DNA from: Anoxybacter fermentans
GTDB lineage: Bacteria > Bacillota > Halanaerobiia > DY22613
Assembly (NCBI RefSeq): GCF_003991135.1
Contig: NZ_CP016379.1
Coordinates: 1,178,001 to 1,242,000, forward strand
Reading direction: 5' to 3'
Length of the DNA: 64,000 nt
Each line of letters opens with the position of its first letter. The stretch's first letter is position 1. A program made the translations under genes and the position numbers. The notes below the pieces were generated by a model. The model was not told where the DNA came from and did no database searches. It worked only from the letters and a program-made list of their open reading frames with translations. Shown piece after piece: positions 32,923-41,232 of this stretch.

Positions 32923-34095
32923 TTATAATATATATCCAGCTTCTTTCAATAATTCCCTAGCTCTTTCCCCTTCAGCAGAAGGAACTAAAACAACAGGGCC
33001 AGTACAGCCCATACCGGTCTCAGCATAGATTCCTTCTTTCCAGAGTACCTTAACTGCATCATCTATCTGAAGGATATCTACACCCGGAATTTCTTCATCT
33101 ACAGTAACCTTCGGTGGGGCTTTAACTTCCTCTACTTCAGAAGCAGAAGTTTTCTTTAAAGCCTCCAACTGATTATCCAGCCCGGCTTTTCTGGCAGCTT
33201 TAATCTCGGCATCAACTATAGCCATGATCTTACCCTGAGCTACATCAGCAGCATACCGGATAGCTCCAGCAACAACAGGAGCACCGGATGCCCTTGAAAG
33301 GATACAGATAATCATATCAAAGTCTTCACCCACACCAGGACCATAACCATAACCTAATGCTTCATAACTACCGCCGGTGGTAAAGCTAGAGAAAATTTTC
33401 ATCAGCAGATTACCTGTTAAAGTATCGGTAACCATTACATCGGGAGTACCCATCAAAAGGTCATTCCCTCTCATTACAACCCCACCGTCGGCCCGGGCAG
33501 ATTCAGTAAATTCGATACCATATCCATTTTTCTTTAATTCTTTTAAAATCTTTTCACATTGCCGTGCACCATCAACATTTAAAATACCTACTTTGGGTTT
33601 ATCTATCCCAATAGCTTTAGCAGTAGCAACTCCATAAATAGCGTTTTTAACCATTGCCCCTACCCGGTGAGTATCAGAAGTACCGGTAGTAGTGGCAATA
33701 ATCATTTCCCGCCCGGTTCCCGGAGTGATAACACGTCCCACAGTAGATACACCAACCGGGAAGTTATAATGCATAGTAACAGCTGCATCTGCTTCTCCAT
33801 TTTTGAGCATGGCTTCCATTTTCTCATGAGCTTCCTTTTCACAGGTAACTTCATGGAGTTCTAAAGAGGTATCACAAGCTGGCCCAATAAGAATAACTTC
33901 CAGATCAGAATTTCTGGCCTGAGCTATTTCTGCCCCTTTAACCAATTCTAAATGGCCATGCTCACTACCAAGGGTGGTTAAAACCACCCGGGTCTTTTTT
34001 CCAAAAGTTCCAGTCTCAATAGCATCTGCGATCTGATTAAAAATCTGCCCTAACTTCTTTCTAGAATCTATAGCAGGCACATTTTCACCTCCCAA
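32923..34095 (-). CDS. grdD: Glycine/sarcosine/betaine reductase complex, component C alpha
   Basis: This 390-residue protein resembles PlsX/phosphate acyltransferase-type enzymes. With GrdC it forms protein C, which converts the acetyl group received from the selenoprotein GrdA into acetyl phosphate. Visible features are VGRVITPGTGREMIIATTTG (about residues 117-136) and the glycine-rich GYGYGPGVGEDFDMIICILS. It is the last gene of the operon, 9 bp after grdC, and is followed by a terminator. Its product lets the cell make ATP through acetate kinase. Confidence 0.94.
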   Translation of the reverse strand: MGGENVPAIDSRKKLGQIFNQIADAIETGTFGKKTRVVLTTLGSEHGHLELVKGAEIAQARNSDLEVILIGPACDTSLELHEVTCEKEAHEKMEAMLKNGEADAAVTMHYNFPVGVSTVGRVITPGTGREMIIATTTGTSDTHRVGAMVKNAIYGVATAKAIGIDKPKVGILNVDGARQCEKILKELKKNGYGIEFTESARADGGVVMRGNDLLMGTPDVMVTDTLTGNLLMKIFSSFTTGGSYEALGYGYGPGVGEDFDMIICILSRASGAPVVAGAIRYAADVAQGKIMAIVDAEIKAARKAGLDNQLEALKKTSASEVEEVKAPPKVTVDEEIPGVDILQIDDAVKVLWKEGIYAETGMGCTGPVVLVPSAEGERARELLKEAGYIL

Positions 34096-34104
34096 ACCGG
34101 CTGC

Positions 34105-35649
34105 CTACTTTTCTTCTTTGAGAAGAATTTGAGCTAATTCACGCATTGCATCGGCAACCATCTTCTTCAGTTTGACATCATCTTCACTAGCAACAGTTTC
34201 TTCAACCACACCGGTGTTCTTTTCCATTACAAAAGATACACCATCAAAGAGATTGGTCATCCGGCCTAAGAACAGACTACCCTTACCAATAATCATGACC
34301 TTTTCAATCTGACCAGCTTTCATCATCTTCATAGCAGGACCAACGAATGGAACACCAGAAGGAATATGGCCCTGAGTTGGAGCGAAACCAGGCATACCAT
34401 GTTTTTTAACAAATTCGGGAATCTCAGTCCGCTCAAGATCACCTCGTTTTACACCTAAAGCGGCAATCATCTTATAATTAGCTTCAGGTACATTACCTGC
34501 ACCAGCAGGTTTAGTAATCTCCGGATTCTGCATTTCTACTGAATATTTATCAATATCAGTAATCTTCAAACCACCTTTATCCAGTGGATTGGTTACCAGA
34601 GCAGTAATAACAGCCTGTGGAGAAGAACCTGTACCCACAGTGTGACGTCCTACCAGGTCGGTTCTAATAATTGGACTTTCGCCATCATTTGCAGTAACAA
34701 GTATAGCAAAACCACCCAGACAATCTTCAAGTAAAGGTATATTTTTAGCCACATGATCTTTACCGTTCATACCCAGTTTAGCAACAGCACCGCCGGCTAT
34801 AACTGCAACAGTTTTGTATACACCAGCTTTAACTAAAGCAGCAGCATTCACTAGAGCATGGGCTGGAGCCGCACAGAAACTTCTTGTATCCGATCCAGTT
34901 GCATTCACACAACCGGCCATCTCAGCCATAGCCTTAGCAAAATTACCACCACCGCGCTGATTGATATCACCGCAAGCTTCTTCAGAAGCCTCAATTACGT
35001 ATTCAATTTCAGAAAGATCAAATCCCTGTTTCTCAAGGTTTAATAGAGCCAAAATACCGGAAGCTTTAGTCATTAAATTTTCTAACATAACATGAGCATT
35101 TAAGTTGGGGTCTGTATCATGAGCCTGTTTAATGCACCCGACCAACTTTTCGCCCAGATATAAACCTTCTGCTACATGCTTGTTGACCAGTTCTTCAATC
35201 TCACTTAATTCTACACCATCACCCAGACCTTTTAAATCTTTCTTACTAAAAATGGGGTGAGATTCTAATTTGGATTTTACTTCAGCAGTAAATTCTTTAG
35301 TCAATTTAACAAGATCAAAACTGTCATACAGCTTGACTAAACCAAAAAATTCATCTTCAGGCATAATCTCTCCCATTTCACCAAAACGGGAAGCATTACT
35401 TACAGGATTTTCATACCAGGGCTGAGGGATATTGTTTAACTCATCTGGTAAAATGTTACCGATAAAAACCTGGTTAGGAGCATATGCAACACAATCGTCA
35501 AAACTTCTTAAAAATTCAGGAATCTTCTTTAAATATTCAGCATCAGGATCTTTTAAACGGGTTTGGGTTTGAGTAGAACCATAGTGAAAGAGAGTTGTAG
35601 GAGTATGAACCAGAATGTAACTGGCTCCTTTTACTACAGGCAATGTCAT
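34105..35649 (-). CDS. grdC: Glycine/sarcosine/betaine reductase complex, component C beta
   Basis: This 514-residue protein has a thiolase/FabH-like fold and carries the acetyl thioester intermediate of protein C. The segment GCVNATGSDTRSFCAAPAHAL (in two parts, about residues 247-267) contains the likely active-site Cys. The N-terminal MTLPVVKGASYILVHTP is typical of GrdC. It is separated from grdB by about 70 bp containing a strong hairpin. Confidence 0.94.
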   Translation of the reverse strand: MTLPVVKGASYILVHTPTTLFHYGSTQTQTRLKDPDAEYLKKIPEFLRSFDDCVAYAPNQVFIGNILPDELNNIPQPWYENPVSNASRFGEMGEIMPEDEFFGLVKLYDSFDLVKLTKEFTAEVKSKLESHPIFSKKDLKGLGDGVELSEIEELVNKHVAEGLYLGEKLVGCIKQAHDTDPNLNAHVMLENLMTKASGILALLNLEKQGFDLSEIEYVIEASEEACGDINQRGGGNFAKAMAEMAGCVNATGSDTRSFCAAPAHALVNAAALVKAGVYKTVAVIAGGAVAKLGMNGKDHVAKNIPLLEDCLGGFAILVTANDGESPIIRTDLVGRHTVGTGSSPQAVITALVTNPLDKGGLKITDIDKYSVEMQNPEITKPAGAGNVPEANYKMIAALGVKRGDLERTEIPEFVKKHGMPGFAPTQGHIPSGVPFVGPAMKMMKAGQIEKVMIIGKGSLFLGRMTNLFDGVSFVMEKNTGVVEETVASEDDVKLKKMVADAMRELAQILLKEEK

Positions 35650-35718: not shown

Positions 35719-37032
35719 TTAATCTTCAAATACAGTTTGCTCATGTACTTCAGTTTCTAAAGCCCTTAATGCTTTTTCAACTAATCTACGGCGGAGCTTT
35801 TTCTCCTCAGCTTTATCCAGCTTAGGATTGCCCAGTGGATGTGGAATTGCTACAGCCGGTACAATTCTGTTAGCACCAACTGTTAAGGAAATTGGAACTA
35901 CGGTAGCTATGTGAACTACAGGGATACCAGCCCGCTCAATCTCTTTTACCATCGTTGCACCGCAACGAGTACATGTTCCTCAGGTGCTGGTAAGTATAAC
36001 TGCCTGAACACCATCAGCGACCAGGTCTTTGGCAATCTCCTGAGCATACCGCTTTGCATTTGCTACAGAAGTACCATTACCAACAGTCGCATACCAGTAA
36101 TCATGCAAACTACCAATTTTACCTTCTTTAACCATTTCTTTAACTACATCAAGAGGCAGTACCCGGTCAGCGTCTTCATTAGCATATACCGGGTCATAAC
36201 CACCGTGAGCGGTTTGACTGTTTTCAGGAGTAAAGTCATCAATATCAGTCAGTTTATATTTACCGTACTTGGAAGCACTCGAAGATTCAATACGATCAGG
36301 ATTACCCTTTGGTACAATACCGCCGGAAGTAACCAGAGCAATTTTGGCTTTGCTAATATCAGCAACAGGAGGATTTGGAGCGACTCTATCAAAATCCGGC
36401 ATAGGATATTCAGTAACAAAATCTTCGCCTTTCAGTTTCTTAATTAACATTTTAACAGCCCGTAAAGAACCACGCTCTTCCGCAAAGAAATTCTTCCGGA
36501 TTCCGCGTGGGAAGTAACCAGCTTCTTCTGGTCCACCAACATTACCATCAGTTTCAATATATTTTTTAGTAAATTCTACGATAGCCGGAACAGCTTTTCG
36601 CATCCCTGCAGCAGAGTCTGCAGTTGGCAGAATATATGCATACTTAGCAAAGATTTCTACTCCTGGGTTTTCTTTGTACATACCTGAAATTACAGGAATA
36701 CCATTCTTCGCAGCCACTTCAGCCACATGACCACAGGCCATACCATAACGTCCTGCGTTGAAGGCAGGACCCGCAATTACTAAATCAGGTTTGATCTGAT
36801 CTATGTATTCCTGTATTTTCGCTTTAGCATCTTCCAGATTTTCATTGAAATAACTATCACCACAGATGATAGTCGCAACTATTTCAGCACTATCTCCCAG
36901 TCCATTATTGATGGCGACACCTGCCCCAACTGGGCCCTCTTTTAACATAGGCTCGATATGAGCTTTATCTTCGCCACCAATTTGGCCGAAGAACTGGTTC
37001 AGATAGTGAAGAATACGCTTTTTACCCATCAT
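35719..37032 (-). CDS. grdB: Glycine reductase component B gamma subunit, selenoprotein
   Basis: This selenoprotein of 437 residues contains one in-frame TGA at 35980-35982, read as selenocysteine at residue 351. The context is ILTST-U-GTCTRCGATM, the well-known GrdB active site. The Sec binds the amine of the glycine Schiff base formed on GrdE and transfers the carboxymethyl group to GrdA. The N-terminus MMGKKRILHYLNQFFGQIGG and the long FAKYAYILPTADSAAGMRK region agree with the family. A SECIS-like hairpin follows the TGA. Conventional gene callers would split it at 35980. Confidence 0.95.
35953..35982 (-). promoter_or_regulatory. UGA Sec codon and SECIS-like hairpin of grdB
   Basis: TGA (35980-35982 on the minus strand) is followed after 12 bases by CGTTGC-GGT-GCAACG, a perfect 6-bp stem with a 3-base loop. 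Bacterial SECIS elements are short hairpins within the coding region just after the UGA, bound by SelB. Distance and size fit that class. Confidence 0.75.
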
Positions 37033-37073: not shown

Positions 37074-37535
37074 TTAAAGGAATTTGCAGTACATATTTCT
37101 ATACTTGGATACTTCTTCAATGATAGCATCCATATCCAATACCATTTCCATCATACTGACCTGCTCGTCATATACAGCAGGATCAATCTCATCCTTCAAT
37201 TCAAAAATGTGATAACACAAGAGTCCCAACTGGACTCCAGCCAATGGACCTGCAAAGGTTGGATCTCCATTAGTAACAGTTTCACATGCAAGACCGGAAG
37301 CTTCTGCTTCGGCCCCACCTAAAACTACTACTAAATTTTCTGGACCATACTTTTCGGCCAGTTCTTTGATCCGCCCTTGGATTTCCAGGTCCATGGCACC
37401 TGCGGCAGTTCAGACAAAACACTCGGTAGTTACCATTACTACTTCAGCTTCGGTTGTCTTAATACATTCTTCGATAGCTGGACCAGGGATACCATCGCGG
37501 TCACCAATGATTGCAACTTTCTTGCCTTTGAGCAT
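37074..37535 (-). CDS. grdA: Glycine reductase selenoprotein A
   Basis: This small selenoprotein of 153 residues shuttles the carboxymethyl group as a Se-carboxymethyl-selenocysteine. The true start is ATG 37535, 8 bases after GGAGGTG. An in-frame TGA at 37410-37412 encodes selenocysteine as residue 42 in the signature [16 protein letters not shown]. Without recoding only the part after residue 42 would be found. It is the electron-accepting partner of thioredoxin: the CxxU pair (C39, U42) is reduced by TrxA encoded three genes upstream in the operon. The gap to grdB is 41 bp. Confidence 0.96.
37386..37412 (-). promoter_or_regulatory. UGA Sec codon and SECIS-like hairpin of grdA
   Basis: Seven bases after the TGA at 37410-37412 comes CAGGT-GCCATGG-ACCTG, a 5-bp stem with a 7-base loop. 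This is in the right place for a bacterial SECIS element. The stem is shorter than in grdB and may extend with non-canonical pairs. Confidence 0.65.
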
Positions 37536-37581: not shown

Positions 37582-38868
37582 TTAGAAACCTTGAGCAGAC
37601 AACTTGCTAAAACCAAGCTCATTAGTAGCACCGGTAATAGCCTGAATCTCAACAGTAATACTACCATCTTCTGCTAATGAACCAGCAAAACCACCAGCTA
37701 TTACATCAGCGGCTTCAATATGACCAATAATCTTCTTCATTGGCGGCAGAGTAATAGTTTCATTAGCATTACCAGCGGTAACCACGGCAGTTGCAGATGG
37801 ATCAGCATCAGCTAAAGACTGTGAAGCACCATCGCGACCTGCATATTCGTCTGTAATAAGAACAGTCTTAATTCCTTGAGCTTCCAATTTCTTGCAGTTC
37901 ATGATTAAATCTGCATCTGGGTTACCGAAACCTTCTTCGGAAATAATAGCAGCATCTAAGTTCAACATACTGGCCAATTTTGCAGTATAGTTAGAAGAAC
38001 GTTCTTTATCAGCAAGAGTTACATTTTCATTAGTGATTATTACACCAACAAAATTATACTCTTTACCATGATATTTGTATAGATCTTCGATAACTGGATT
38101 GTTCTGATGATGGTAAGTAGTGTTTTTATCACAGGCAGAAACACAGTTACCGCTAACAATAGCTCCATCAAATACTTCAGTTGGATAAATAAGGGTTGGC
38201 AAAATCTGCTTAGCGTCAACTCCATAAACATAGGTATCATGAAGCAGACCCTGGCTTTGCAACATATAAATATATGCTACTCTTGGCAGATCTTTATATT
38301 TCTCTGCACCTTCAAAGAATGGCAGAGCTTCATAAGTTTCAATTTCATCAGGTTCTACATTTCGGCCAGCTTCTCCAATATATTGAGCAGCTTTAAGACC
38401 AATCAAGCGTAAGGCAGCTTCATGCTCATGTTGGGGCAAGTTGTCTACAGGTTCTGCCTTGACTACAATATTGTAAGTCTTGGAGAACGGAGTATAATCA
38501 GCACCAGGACCGCTCATATCAATAATACCTTCCTGGAAACCGACAATCTTACCTGTAGTTACCACAGCAGCCCCTTTAAGAACATGGGTCCGACCAGAAC
38601 CTACAGTTTCTACTTTGGAGACAAAACCCGGAAATACACCGCCATTGCCTTCAACTTTAACACGCGGCTCAATAACGTCTTTGACAGGAATAATCCTGAC
38701 TTCTTCGCCTGGTTTAGCCAGATCAACATCAATAGAAGCAATTCTGGCGTCACCGCTCAGTTTTTCAATCAGTTCTTCTTTATTAATAGTGAGGATTCCA
38801 TTTTTTACCTCAGTCTTGTCTCCAAATTGTACATCTTTAATATAAATCTTTCCTAACTCAAGACGCAT
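37582..38868 (-). CDS. grdE: Glycine reductase component B proprotein (GrdE)
   Basis: This 428-residue proprotein is cleaved at a cysteine to give two subunits, the smaller of which carries an N-terminal pyruvoyl group that binds glycine as a Schiff base. The expected cleavage region is SGNCVSACDKNTTYHHQNNP at about residues 240-259, with Cys near 243. Both halves show family segments (GGVFPGFVSKVETVGSGRTH early, GGFAGSLAEDGSITVEIQAI late). Having grdE rather than grdF/grdG or grdH/grdI neighbours, together with a glycine riboswitch, argues that glycine is the substrate. Confidence 0.95.
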   Translation of the reverse strand: MRLELGKIYIKDVQFGDKTEVKNGILTINKEELIEKLSGDARIASIDVDLAKPGEEVRIIPVKDVIEPRVKVEGNGGVFPGFVSKVETVGSGRTHVLKGAAVVTTGKIVGFQEGIIDMSGPGADYTPFSKTYNIVVKAEPVDNLPQHEHEAALRLIGLKAAQYIGEAGRNVEPDEIETYEALPFFEGAEKYKDLPRVAYIYMLQSQGLLHDTYVYGVDAKQILPTLIYPTEVFDGAIVSGNCVSACDKNTTYHHQNNPVIEDLYKYHGKEYNFVGVIITNENVTLADKERSSNYTAKLASMLNLDAAIISEEGFGNPDADLIMNCKKLEAQGIKTVLITDEYAGRDGASQSLADADPSATAVVTAGNANETITLPPMKKIIGHIEAADVIAGGFAGSLAEDGSITVEIQAITGATNELGFSKLSAQGF

Positions 38869-38903: not shown

Positions 38904-39227
38904 TTAGATATGTTTTTTAATTTCCTCTTCAATCTCAGCAGCGGTTAAATCTTCGCCACTTAATTGGGCTACTTTCTCGCCGTCTTTATAAAAGCACATG
39001 GTTGGCAATCCCATAACTCGCTGGCTAATAGCAAGACGACGATTTTTAGTAATATCCAGTTTACAGAATTTCATCTTTTCACCATACTTCTCAGCCAGAG
39101 CTTCAACTTCAGGCATCAACTCCTGACAAGGCTCACACTTAGGACTATAATAATCAACCATTACCGGTTGAGATTTAGAAGCCTCCAAAACTTCGGCCTC
39201 AAAATTCTCCTTGTTTACTTCAAGCAT
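38904..39227 (-). CDS. trxA: Thioredoxin of the glycine reductase operon
   Basis: This 107-residue thioredoxin has the active site CEPC (in SPKCEPCQELMPE, about residues 29-41) instead of the usual CGPC. The cis-proline is in VMGLPTMCFYKDG. The start is ATG 39227, with GGAGGTGG upstream; a GTG at 39236 falls inside that site. It takes electrons from the TrxB encoded 37 bp upstream and reduces GrdA. Altered active-site residues are known for grd-associated thioredoxins, which are often specialised. Confidence 0.95.
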   Translation of the reverse strand: MLEVNKENFEAEVLEASKSQPVMVDYYSPKCEPCQELMPEVEALAEKYGEKMKFCKLDITKNRRLAISQRVMGLPTMCFYKDGEKVAQLSGEDLTAAEIEEEIKKHI

Positions 39228-39264
39228 CCCTTCCACCTCCTTTCAAAGGTAAGATCAAAGTAAA

Positions 39265-40476
39265 CTAACCTTCTATAATTTTTAATACATTTTCTTTTGT
39301 AACATCTTCAAGCCGATTCTTAAGTTCACCATCAACAAAGTAAAGTAGAGTTGGAATATTCTTAATTTCATAGCGGTCAGCGATCAAACGGTTTTTATAT
39401 GTATCGATTTTAACTAATTTGACATTCTTCTCTTCTAAACCCAAGTTTTCCAACATGTTAATAGTATCAAAGGTAGATTCAACAGTAGGACTCCAGAAGA
39501 TAACTAAAACTGGTTTATCAGCATTTAATACATCGGTTTTAAATCCTTCCTCTTCAGCAATATATTTCTCAGCAGCAGTAGCAGCTATAGCACCATCAGC
39601 CGCTGCAGTAACAACCTGGCGGAGATACTTTTGCCGTACGTCACCAGCAGCAAATATTCCAGGAACATTTGTCTCCATCTTATCATTGGTTATAATATAA
39701 CCAAAATCATCCATTTCAATAAGATCTTTTACAAAATCAGTCTTAGGAACTGTACCGACAAAGAAGAATACTCCATCACAGGGCATTTCAGTAATTTCAC
39801 CGGTCTTTAGATTTTTGATTTTTACACCGGTTACTACTTCATCTCCTACAACTTCCTCTAAAACAGAATTCCAGACAAAATCAATTTTTGGATTTGCATA
39901 AGCTCTCTCCTGGATTACCTTTGTAGCATCCATAATTCCTTCATCATGAACAACTATAATTGTTACTTTTCTTGCAAACCTGGTTAGATAAATTGCTTCC
40001 TCAACCGCAGCATCACCATTACCAACAACAACTACATCCAGATCGGTATAAAAGTCAGCATCACATGTAGCGCAATATGATACACCGCGACCCCTAAATT
40101 CACCTTCTCCTTTAACTCCCAAAACCCGTGGTTCAGCACCGGTAGCAATGATAACAGTCTTAGTAACCAGATCACCATCCCGGGTTTTAACAATTCGCTT
40201 ATCGCCTTCACATTTAATCTCTAAAGCTTCTGTCCTGATAAACTCAGCTCCAAAAGCTTTTGCATGTTCAGCCATTCTTTTTGTCAATTCAGGCCCAGTC
40301 GTACCTTGCGCAAAACCAGGATAGTTCTCCATCTCCTCAGTAGTAGCAGCTTGCCCACCTGGTTTTCTCTTCTTTTCAATAATTGCTGTTTTCAGCTTAG
40401 CACGGGAACCGTAAATTCCGGCTGCCAGACCTGCTGGCCCTCCACCAATAATTAACAGATCATATTCTTTATTCAT
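39265..40476 (-). CDS. trxB: Thioredoxin reductase fused to a degenerate thioredoxin domain
   Basis: This 403-residue flavoprotein has a full thioredoxin reductase body. It contains FAD-binding GGGPAGLAAGIYGSRA (residues 11-26), redox-active CATC (about 135-138), NAD(P)H-binding VVGNGDAAVEEA and FAD-binding GIFAAGDV near 285. About 90 extra residues follow, with a thioredoxin-like fold (VLVIFWSPTVESTFDTINML, cis-Pro in IKNIPTLLYF). Both active-site cysteines are replaced, so this domain cannot do dithiol chemistry. It may serve as a docking module. Normal TrxB is about 310 residues. The enzyme feeds electrons to TrxA and then to GrdA. Confidence 0.93.
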   Translation of the reverse strand: MNKEYDLLIIGGGPAGLAAGIYGSRAKLKTAIIEKKRKPGGQAATTEEMENYPGFAQGTTGPELTKRMAEHAKAFGAEFIRTEALEIKCEGDKRIVKTRDGDLVTKTVIIATGAEPRVLGVKGEGEFRGRGVSYCATCDADFYTDLDVVVVGNGDAAVEEAIYLTRFARKVTIIVVHDEGIMDATKVIQERAYANPKIDFVWNSVLEEVVGDEVVTGVKIKNLKTGEITEMPCDGVFFFVGTVPKTDFVKDLIEMDDFGYIITNDKMETNVPGIFAAGDVRQKYLRQVVTAAADGAIAATAAEKYIAEEEGFKTDVLNADKPVLVIFWSPTVESTFDTINMLENLGLEEKNVKLVKIDTYKNRLIADRYEIKNIPTLLYFVDGELKNRLEDVTKENVLKIIEG

Positions 40477-40493: not shown

Positions 40494-40871
40494 TTATTCA
40501 ACCAGAGATTGGTATCCACTGGTCAATAAAGTCAAATCTAATTCCTGAAAATCTTTTAAGACATTTTCAGACCAATTGGGTATAGGGTGATCTTTTTGAA
40601 ACTGTTCAAATTTTCTGATAGCGTCTTCGATAATTGATAATGAATTAAAGTCTAACTTACCTGGTTTAAGACTGACCATTATGGAACGATAGGGAGTCGC
40701 ATTAGGTTTAATGCTTCCGGCCATTGGATGGCTTATTAATTTGTGGCCAATATGTACTAAATCCCTTGTCCGAATCAGTACATCTTTAACTGTTTTTTCA
40801 ATAATCATCTCCTGTTGTTTATATCTTTCAATTACCGCCGGATTATTTGTTATAATTAAAATCTGTCTCAA
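40494..40871 (-). CDS. grdX: GrdX family protein
   Basis: This 125-residue protein matches GrdX, a small protein of unknown function found at the head of glycine, sarcosine and betaine reductase operons. Recognisable segments are the start RQILIITNNPAVIERY and HIGHKLISHPMAGSIKPN in the middle. It has no signal peptide or membrane span. It is the first gene after the glycine riboswitch and its terminator, so its expression is the most directly controlled by glycine. Confidence 0.88.
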   Translation of the reverse strand: MRQILIITNNPAVIERYKQQEMIIEKTVKDVLIRTRDLVHIGHKLISHPMAGSIKPNATPYRSIMVSLKPGKLDFNSLSIIEDAIRKFEQFQKDHPIPNWSENVLKDFQELDLTLLTSGYQSLVE

Positions 40872-40998: not shown

Positions 40999-41190
40999 TG
41001 TCTTCAACCTGAGAGTTTAATTCTCCTTATTATTTTAATAAGGAGAATTTGCTCCTTCGGTGTCAAAAATGACTTTCCAGAGCCCTGTCAGGATACGGTC
41101 CTTTGACCTGAGAGCTTCTTCCCGGGGACTGGCCGGTCTCCGGAAATTTCTCCTTCGGTGCCCGCACATAGCGAGACTCTCCCGCATCCT
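40999..41190 (-). promoter_or_regulatory. Tandem glycine riboswitch
   Basis: Two glycine aptamers are visible on the minus strand. Aptamer 1 runs from GGGAGAGTCTCGC near 41186 through CACCGAAGGAGAAAT and AGCTCTCAGGT to about 41095. Aptamer 2 has TCTGGAAAGTCATTTTTGAC, CACCGAAGGAGCAAAT and AAACTCTCAGGT, ending near 41005. The linker CAAAGGACCGTATCCTGACAG lies between. These are the conserved glycine aptamer elements. Binding of glycine should prevent the downstream terminator from forming and so turn on the grd operon when its substrate is present. Confidence 0.95.
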
Positions 41191-41232
41191 TCATCCAGCT
41201 TTGTGAAATTTTCAACATTTCATGTCTAATAT

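What the first reader, a model, noticed from the sequence alone, without database searches (positions are those of the whole stretch)
39265..40476. Thioredoxin reductase fused to a cysteine-less thioredoxin domain
The grd operon TrxB carries about 90 extra residues with a thioredoxin-like fold: FWSPTVEST stands where FWAxWCxxC is expected, and the cis-proline (IKNIPTLLY) is kept. Without cysteines it cannot transfer electrons itself. It may hold GrdA, TrxA or the whole reductase complex, giving channelling of electrons to the selenoprotein.
Basis: partly seen in the sequence, partly recalled or inferred. Interest (0 to 1): 0.55.

Follow-up and report, generated by a model that had tools for sequence, protein, structure and literature searches.

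The report
Thioredoxin reductase with dead thioredoxin domain
The enzyme that probably feeds electrons to the glycine-degrading selenoprotein system in this bacterium carries an extra thioredoxin-shaped domain without its reactive cysteines, and many related anaerobes keep the same add-on, perhaps as a docking part on a reductase rebuilt to run on NADH.

Summary
TrxB at 39265-40476(-) is 403 aa: a TrxB core (CATC) plus about 95 residues matching Pfam Thioredoxin (38.1 bits, cut-off 23.5), predicted as a thioredoxin fold (pLDDT 92; Z 16). It is a conserved trait: of 99 extended TrxBs with distinct cores none has CxxC; the second-Cys position is Ser in 81. In 398 genomes of the window's phylum, 56 of 61 with a strong extension hit carry GrdA, against 52 of 337 others.

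(1) The NADPH motif HRRxxxR is absent from 98 of 99 extended TrxBs; 87 read H[D/E]EGxxD, while the dinucleotide fingerprint stays. This predicts NADH use. (2) The extended TrxB is the only TrxB found in this genome, and genomes without GrdA have the domain too, so it is not dedicated to GrdA.

Best reading: a non-catalytic docking domain joined by a predicted continuous helix to an NADH-type TrxB. Docking and NADH use are inferred. New variant of a known kind.

The parts
39265..40476 (-). trxB: 403-aa thioredoxin reductase with C-terminal cysteine-less thioredoxin domain
39562..40476 (-). TrxB core, residues 1-305 (FAD and dinucleotide domains)
   Evidence: PF07992 4.9e-52; TIGR01292 above cut-off; VIA Z 37.6 to 4gcm_B
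40063..40074 (-). catalytic CATC, residues 135-138
   Evidence: sequence; C135 and C138 invariant in A2, 47 rows
39928..39948 (-). HDEGIMD, residues 177-183, in place of the NADPH 2'-phosphate motif HRRxxxR
   Evidence: H177, G180, D183 invariant in A2
39526..39615 (-). predicted continuous helix 288-317 that joins core and extension
   Evidence: AlphaFold2 model, DSSP
39268..39555 (-). extension: cysteine-less thioredoxin fold, residues 308-403
   Evidence: PF00085; model pLDDT 92.3; Foldseek and VIA matches to thioredoxins
39472..39498 (-). FWSPTVEST, residues 327-335, where FWxxWCxxC stands in a thioredoxin
   Evidence: sequence; census of 99 extensions
39391..39405 (-). DTYKN, residues 358-362, conserved loop of the extension
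39352..39354 (-). cis-proline equivalent P375
   Evidence: 100% in 99 extensions
38904..39236 (-). trxA: grd-type thioredoxin, KCEPC active site, the adjacent likely redox partner
   Evidence: NF047697 ThioredTrxAClost 159.5 bits, cut-off 140
40494..40871 (-). grdX
   Evidence: NF038093 137.2 bits, cut-off 40
37582..38868 (-). grdE (component B subunits)
   Evidence: PF09338 738.9 bits
37074..37535 (-). grdA selenoprotein, in-frame TGA at 37410-37412
   Evidence: PF04723; frame printed
35719..37032 (-). grdB selenoprotein, in-frame TGA
   Evidence: PF07355 for 35980-37032; SECIS_4 at 35942-35979; frame
34105..35649 (-). grdC
   Evidence: ORF; relatives stand in the same operons; name recalled from operon order, not tested against a family
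32923..34095 (-). grdD
   Evidence: as grdC
41086..41194 (-). glycine riboswitch upstream of grdX-trxB-trxA-grd
   Evidence: Rfam RF00504 67.7 bits, gathering 32

Best explanation
A working thioredoxin reductase whose core was rebuilt to take NADH instead of NADPH and which carries a redox-dead thioredoxin fold as a rigidly attached docking domain. The core moves electrons NADH -> FAD -> C135/C138 -> the CxxC of a free thioredoxin (chiefly the neighbouring KCEPC TrxA), which reduces GrdA. The extension takes no part in electron transfer. Its thioredoxin-like face, kept in shape but without the cysteines and mostly without the glycine two residues before the cis-proline, holds a partner shared by different grd operon types (TrxA or GrdA rather than component B) close to the reductase. 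Shown: sequence, fold prediction, absence of CxxC, conservation, purifying selection, grd linkage, change of the dinucleotide motif. Inferred: NADH use, docking, and the identity of the partner.
For: Fold: pLDDT 92.3 alone; best matches are thioredoxins, Foldseek E 3.2e-9, TM 0.85, VIA Z 16.3, rmsd 1.6 over 97 residues. CxxC in 0 of 99 extensions; first Cys position never Cys; second Ser 81, Ala 7, Thr 4, Cys 4, Gly 3. Selection: extension dN/dS 0.03-0.18 in 14 of 17 pairs tried. grd linkage: 56 of 61 strong-extension genomes have GrdA vs 52 of 337 others, Fisher p 6e-32 (kinship not corrected); 64 of 71 places within 12 kb of GrdA. NADH site: HRR absent in 98 of 99, H[D/E]EGxxD in 87, with G152, G154 and A157 of the fingerprint invariant in 47 rows. 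NADH-preferring reductases without HRR are reported: T. maritima TR and DvTR3 (PMC5627308, abstract, passages and sections 22-23). Shared partner: within one genome the extensions are 100, 96 and 90% alike (G015, G034, G037) although GrdE and GrdB are only 41-53% alike. Repurposed face: the residue two before the cis-proline is Gly in 89% of 105 thioredoxins but Glu 47%, Lys 15% in extensions; Y360 is 88% in extensions and not among the four commonest residues of the thioredoxins there. Rigid link: helix 288-317 runs through the junction.
Against: No binding, kinetic or complex data; only monomers were modelled. 52 of 108 GrdA genomes lack a strong extension hit; 12 of 40 loci read from such genomes have a TrxB without extension (11 with HRR, 11 with a TrxA hit close by), so glycine reduction does not need the domain. 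It also occurs without GrdA. Extension and motif change are essentially one clade (2 changes each on 56 rows), so their link is not independent evidence. L049 has HRR with an extension. Shared-partner argument: in G015, G034 and G037 GrdC and GrdD are also 95-100% alike, so a recently copied block could explain it; in the other seven pairs the extensions are only 44-79% alike, against 72-94% for the core.
Confidence: 0.45

Rival explanations
1. The extension is structural: it stabilises the TrxB dimer or limits the rotation of the dinucleotide domain, and binds no other protein.
For: It is joined by a continuous predicted helix and occurs in several operon settings with different neighbours.
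Against: It keeps a thioredoxin face and an invariant DxYxN loop, though whether these are exposed could not be computed; no dimer model could be made to test the idea.
Confidence: 0.22
2. The extension docks the electron donor (an NADH-producing dehydrogenase, ferredoxin or other carrier) rather than the acceptor.
For: It goes with loss of HRR in 98 of 99.
Against: L049 has the extension with an intact HRR and is placed, weakly (83/22), as sister of the main clade, as if the extension came first. The dinucleotide fingerprint G152/G154/A157 is invariant in 47 rows, so a free dinucleotide remains the likely donor.
Confidence: 0.12
3. It is a pseudo-substrate that occupies the reductase's own thioredoxin site and restrains it until a true thioredoxin arrives.
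For: A thioredoxin fold without cysteines, fused to the enzyme that binds thioredoxins.
Against: The Gly two before the cis-proline (recalled: Gly74 of E. coli Trx, a contact with TrxB) is mostly replaced, by Glu in 47%; the predicted junction is a helix, not a flexible tether.
Confidence: 0.08
4. A relic: a once active TrxB-Trx fusion that lost its cysteines and is decaying.
For: TrxB-Trx fusions with active cysteines are known (NTRC; recalled).
Against: Low dN/dS in 14 of 17 pairs; F327, W328, E343, K356, D358, Y360, N362, P375 invariant in 47 rows; all 43 extensions in the domain tree lie apart from the 37 thioredoxins with CxxC (99*).
Confidence: 0.05

Closest known systems
Low-molecular-weight bacterial TrxB (TIGR01292)
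   Same: FAD/dinucleotide core, CATC, GRG-VSY sequence before it; above the family cut-off
   Different: Extra C-terminal Trx fold; HRRxxxR replaced by HDEGxxD
C. difficile TrxB3/TrxA3 of the grd operon (PMC10880999, abstract and passages seen)
   Same: trxB-trxA pair in the grd operon, GCEPC TrxA (KCEPC here)
   Different: TrxB3 is reported to have GxGxxA and HRRxxxR; no extension is mentioned in the passages seen
NTRC and other TrxB-Trx fusions (recalled; NTRC chain 9vv4)
   Same: Thioredoxin domain on the C-terminal side of TrxB
   Different: Those thioredoxin domains have an active CxxC (recalled); here none of 99 does, and a separate TrxA is present
AhpF and AhpF_homolog (TIGR03140, TIGR03143)
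   Same: TrxB-like core; AhpF also has a cysteine-less Trx fold (recalled); TIGR03143 is the best-scoring NCBIfam model (381 bits)
   Different: Below both cut-offs; one extra fold only, and that most like single-domain thioredoxins
NADH-preferring TRs: Thermotoga maritima TR, Desulfovibrio DvTR3 (PMC5627308)
   Same: HRR absent; pyrophosphate motif kept in TR3
   Different: No Trx extension is described in the parts seen; whether the replacement residues agree was not compared
PDI b-type and other redox-inactive Trx folds (recalled)
   Same: Trx fold without CxxC used for binding
   Different: Different proteins; comparison by analogy only

Membership tests
Bacterial TrxB (TIGR01292) | score above curated cut-off | tested here: met
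   374.4 vs 343.45 bits
Bacterial TrxB (TIGR01292) | redox-active CxxC | tested here: met
   CATC, both Cys invariant in 47 rows
NADPH-dependent TrxB (NTR) | HRRxxxR 2'-phosphate motif | tested here: not met
   HDEGIMD
NADPH-dependent TrxB (NTR) | NADPH used as donor | not testable with these tools
   needs an enzyme assay
FFTR (ferredoxin-dependent) | loss of GxGxxA and HRRxxxR (definition from PMC10880999 passages) | tested here: not met
   HRR lost but G152, G154, A157 invariant in A2
TRi (Desulfovibrio type) | TQ/NGK in place of HRRD (PMC5627308) | tested here: not met
   HDEG instead
Thioredoxin (PF00085), the extension | score above gathering cut-off and Trx fold | tested here: met
   38.1 vs 23.5 bits; predicted fold
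Thioredoxin (TIGR01068 equivalog), the extension | score above cut-off, and CxxC | tested here: not met
   44.3 vs 96.8 bits; 0 of 99 CxxC
NTRC / active TrxB-Trx fusion | CxxC in the fused domain | tested here: not met
AhpF_homolog (TIGR03143) | score above cut-off over 555 positions | tested here: not met
   381.4 vs 687.65, positions 1-311 only
NADH-type TR | NADH preference | not testable with these tools
   motif only

The most novel reading that the evidence does not exclude
An undescribed subfamily of NADH-driven thioredoxin reductases, spread through Halanaerobiales, Syntrophomonas relatives and other Bacillota, uses a fused pseudo-thioredoxin to assemble TrxB, TrxA and the selenoprotein GrdA into one electron-delivery complex; sister forms do the same for a YedE/TusA sulfur or selenium relay and for other atypical thioredoxins.
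Probability: 0.25. Interest if true: 0.72.

Novelty: new variant of a known kind. Interest (0 to 1): 0.5.

Why it matters
Glycine and betaine reductases conserve energy in Stickland and acetogenic metabolism, and whether their electrons come from NADPH or NADH changes the energy budget of those cells. If the extended TrxBs use NADH, pathway models that assume an NADP-linked reductase need revision for about half of the GrdA-bearing genomes sampled (56 of 108 have a strong extension hit). The extension is also a clean, testable case of a catalytic fold kept, it seems, only for binding, on the very enzyme whose substrate has that fold.

Tried and rejected
Rejected: chance or frameshift. Disfavoured: the extension as the Cys-less first fold of an AhpF-type tandem; the isolated model's listed matches are single-domain thioredoxins and the TIGR03143 match stops at position 311; AhpF folds are not excluded by those lists. 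Disfavoured: recent copy of the operon's TrxA; the extensions stand apart from the CxxC thioredoxins on a 99* branch (105 columns for 80 rows, many forks open), and R368/Y369 agree with the housekeeping Trx rather than TrxA. Rejected: grd-only domain. Unsettled: whether the TusA-type extensions (L046, L047, L048, L050) share one origin with the main clade; the tree separates them on a long branch, but one extended clade is not rejected (p-AU 0.348), nor one no-HRR clade (0.339). Weak: placing of L049 (83/22). The whole-model VIA list covered only residues 1-312, so the extension was folded alone. Literature: ten searches; by title and abstract start none listed a paper on a cysteine-less Trx extension of TrxB, which is no proof that none exists. 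The first ORF picking chose wrong frames for several loci and was redone. One search's cut of the extensions was faulty (27 of 113) and was redone. On the 113-row quick tree the traits needed 5 and 3 changes, with two rows (L102, L122) wrongly labelled 'noext'; one search counts both as extended. Dropped before the 113-row count: 13 rows (11 duplicates; L062 and L080 truncated), and 26 loci without a complete TrxB hit. L168 reads IRRGMTEIG at the aligned motif and is counted as no HRR; L153 and L052 lack both HRR and extension. Confidence of the best explanation was lowered from 0.5 to 0.45 (and the structural rival raised to 0.22) when the recount showed that GrdC and GrdD are as alike as the extensions in three paralogous pairs.

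Full report
What is there. The minus-strand operon reads glycine riboswitch (41086-41194, RF00504), grdX, trxB, trxA, grdE, grdA, grdB, grdC, grdD (grdC and grdD named from recalled operon order). TrxB (39265-40476) is 403 residues. Residues 5-306 are a thioredoxin reductase (TIGR01292 above cut-off; VIA Z 37.6 to 4gcm_B). Residues 308-398 match PF00085 above its cut-off. The extension has no cysteine. FWSPTVEST stands at the active-site position and P375 at the cis-proline.

The fold. AlphaFold2 on a 47-row alignment gave mean pLDDT 88.6, with a single helix over residues 288-317 across the junction. The extension alone reached pLDDT 92.3. Its best matches are single-domain thioredoxins (Foldseek E 3.2e-9; VIA Z 16.3, rmsd 1.6 A over 97 residues).

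How widespread. A scan of named genomes with an alignment of 13 extensions found 50 loci, among them Halothermothrix sp., Natroniella acetigena, Candidatus Frackibacter, Syntrophaceticus schinkii, Syntrophomonas zehnderi and Candidatus Formimonas warabiya (four loci). 42 of 50 have at least one grd gene in the held flank. Of the eight without, four end just after trxB or trxA (L080, L085, L087, L100). The other four form one clade (L090, L107, L117, L124), where no grd gene stands near but each genome has a GrdA match elsewhere. In a survey of 398 genomes of the phylum, 61 have an extension hit below E 1e-20, a cut I set at a gap in the list between 4.7e-22 and 1.2e-19, and 108 have GrdA; 56 have both (Fisher p 6e-32, kinship not corrected). 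64 of 71 extension places lie within 12 kb of GrdA on the same contig. Of the other seven, G002 has grdE, grdB, grdC and grdD beside it, G375, G406 and G419 were not read, and G162, G174 and G205 have no GrdA match.

The other half. 52 of the 108 GrdA genomes have no strong extension hit. I read 40 loci around GrdA from such genomes. 24 have no complete local TrxB (two of these, L125 and L126, have a fragment at a contig end), 12 have a TrxB without extension (11 with HRR; L153 without), and 4 have a diverged extended TrxB (L147, L151, L154, L160). So glycine reduction does not need the domain.

Beyond grd. TrxBs with weaker extensions, likewise without CxxC, stand in LysR-YedE/TusA-type loci (L046, L047, L048, L050; the YedE and TusA matches, tested for L048 alone, are below NCBIfam's cut-offs) and beside small thioredoxins with unusual sites such as CHVC (L043, L045, L166, L167). 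Of the genomes of L043-L050, G005, G061 and G080 have no GrdA match, G049 and G100 do.

Active site. Over 99 extended TrxBs with distinct cores none has CxxC. The first cysteine position is V, D, N, S, I, H, Q, K, E, G or R; the second is S 81, A 7, T 4, C 4, G 3. 76 have no cysteine anywhere in the extension. Invariant in 47 rows: F327, W328, E343, K356, D358, Y360, N362, P375. Compared with 105 thioredoxins from the same loci, Y360 (88% of extensions) is not among the four commonest residues, and the residue two before the cis-proline is Gly in 89% of thioredoxins but Glu 47% or Lys 15% in extensions. dN/dS for the extension was 0.03-0.18 in 14 of 17 pairs, 0.34 in one paralogous pair (L104/L111), and not estimable in two because synonymous change was saturated. 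It was higher than in the core in most pairs; L039/L040 and L079/L084 are exceptions.

The cofactor site. 98 of 99 extended TrxBs lack HRR: 87 read H[D/E]EGxxD, 4 HDQGxxD, the 4 TusA-type ones HDxGxxD, and L160, L165 and L168 are odd. 12 of 14 without extension have HRR. The fingerprint GxGxxA is invariant in 47 rows. Replacing arginines that hold the 2'-phosphate by acids is the classical sign of NADH use (established knowledge). NADH-preferring reductases without HRR are reported for T. maritima and Desulfovibrio DvTR3 (PMC5627308; abstract, passages and sections 22-23). On the core tree the two traits change twice each over 56 rows, so this is mainly one clade (40 rows, 97/97). L049, with HRR and an extension, is its weakly supported sister (83/22), which suggests that the extension came first. 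The TusA-type group lies apart, but a single extended clade is not rejected (p-AU 0.348).

What it may hold. In ten pairs of grd operons of one genome, GrdE and GrdB are 27-53% identical between operons. The extensions are 100% (G015), 96% (G034) and 90% (G037) identical in three pairs and 44-79% in the other seven; in eight of ten the extension is more than five points less alike than the core. One locus of G015 (L038) holds two operons, of which the genes most like the window's were compared. A partner common to both operon types, TrxA or GrdA, fits better than component B, but GrdC and GrdD are 95-100% alike in the same three pairs, so a recently copied block could give the same picture. 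In the window's genome this TrxB is the only one found (E 1e-10; G359 likewise has one hit among 37 genomes at E 1e-25; the extra hits of the other 35 were not sorted into TrxB and other flavoproteins). A WCGPC thioredoxin lies elsewhere in the genome. This TrxB must therefore also serve general thiol reduction unless an unrelated reductase does.

Conclusion. A conserved docking-type pseudo-thioredoxin on a probably NADH-using TrxB is the best reading (0.45). A structural role is the strongest rival. C. difficile TrxB3 is reported to have HRRxxxR (PMC10880999, abstract and passages). The Formimonas genome paper records trxB and trxA in four of five grd clusters without mentioning the extension in the passages seen (PMC6778437). 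PMC12674515, PMC9751293 and PMC2398784 were seen as passages only; PMC9751293 describes NADP-linked thioredoxin reductases for glycine reduction in a different candidate phylum.

Noticed in passing
L046, L047, L048, L050: Extended TrxB downstream of split YedE/YeeE-type transporter genes and TusA-like sulfur carriers (LysR-like gene upstream): a possible selenium or sulfur relay with its own pseudo-Trx reductase.
   Followed up: partly
L166 (7679-9887) and L167: Extended TrxB beside one or two small thioredoxins with unusual active sites, in genomes without a GrdA match.
   Followed up: partly
L039 and L040 (one genome, G008): Two grd operons whose TrxB cores are 94% identical with few synonymous differences (pS 0.19) while the extensions are 71% identical (pS 0.62): gene conversion may stop before the extension.
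   Followed up: partly
L052: Thioredoxin domain with CPPC fused on the N-terminal side of a TrxB, no grd gene near.
   Followed up: no
L090, L107, L117, L124: One clade in which the extended TrxB stands apart from the grd operon, near an inositol-monophosphatase-like or SIMPL-like gene (names by look, not tested).
   Followed up: partly
22 of the loci L127-L163: grd loci without any TrxB hit in the fetched stretch: their electron source must be encoded elsewhere.
   Followed up: no
window 41086-41194 and just downstream: Glycine riboswitch upstream of the grd operon; only one aptamer passes the Rfam cut-off, although the neighbouring sequence looks like a second one (by eye).
   Followed up: no
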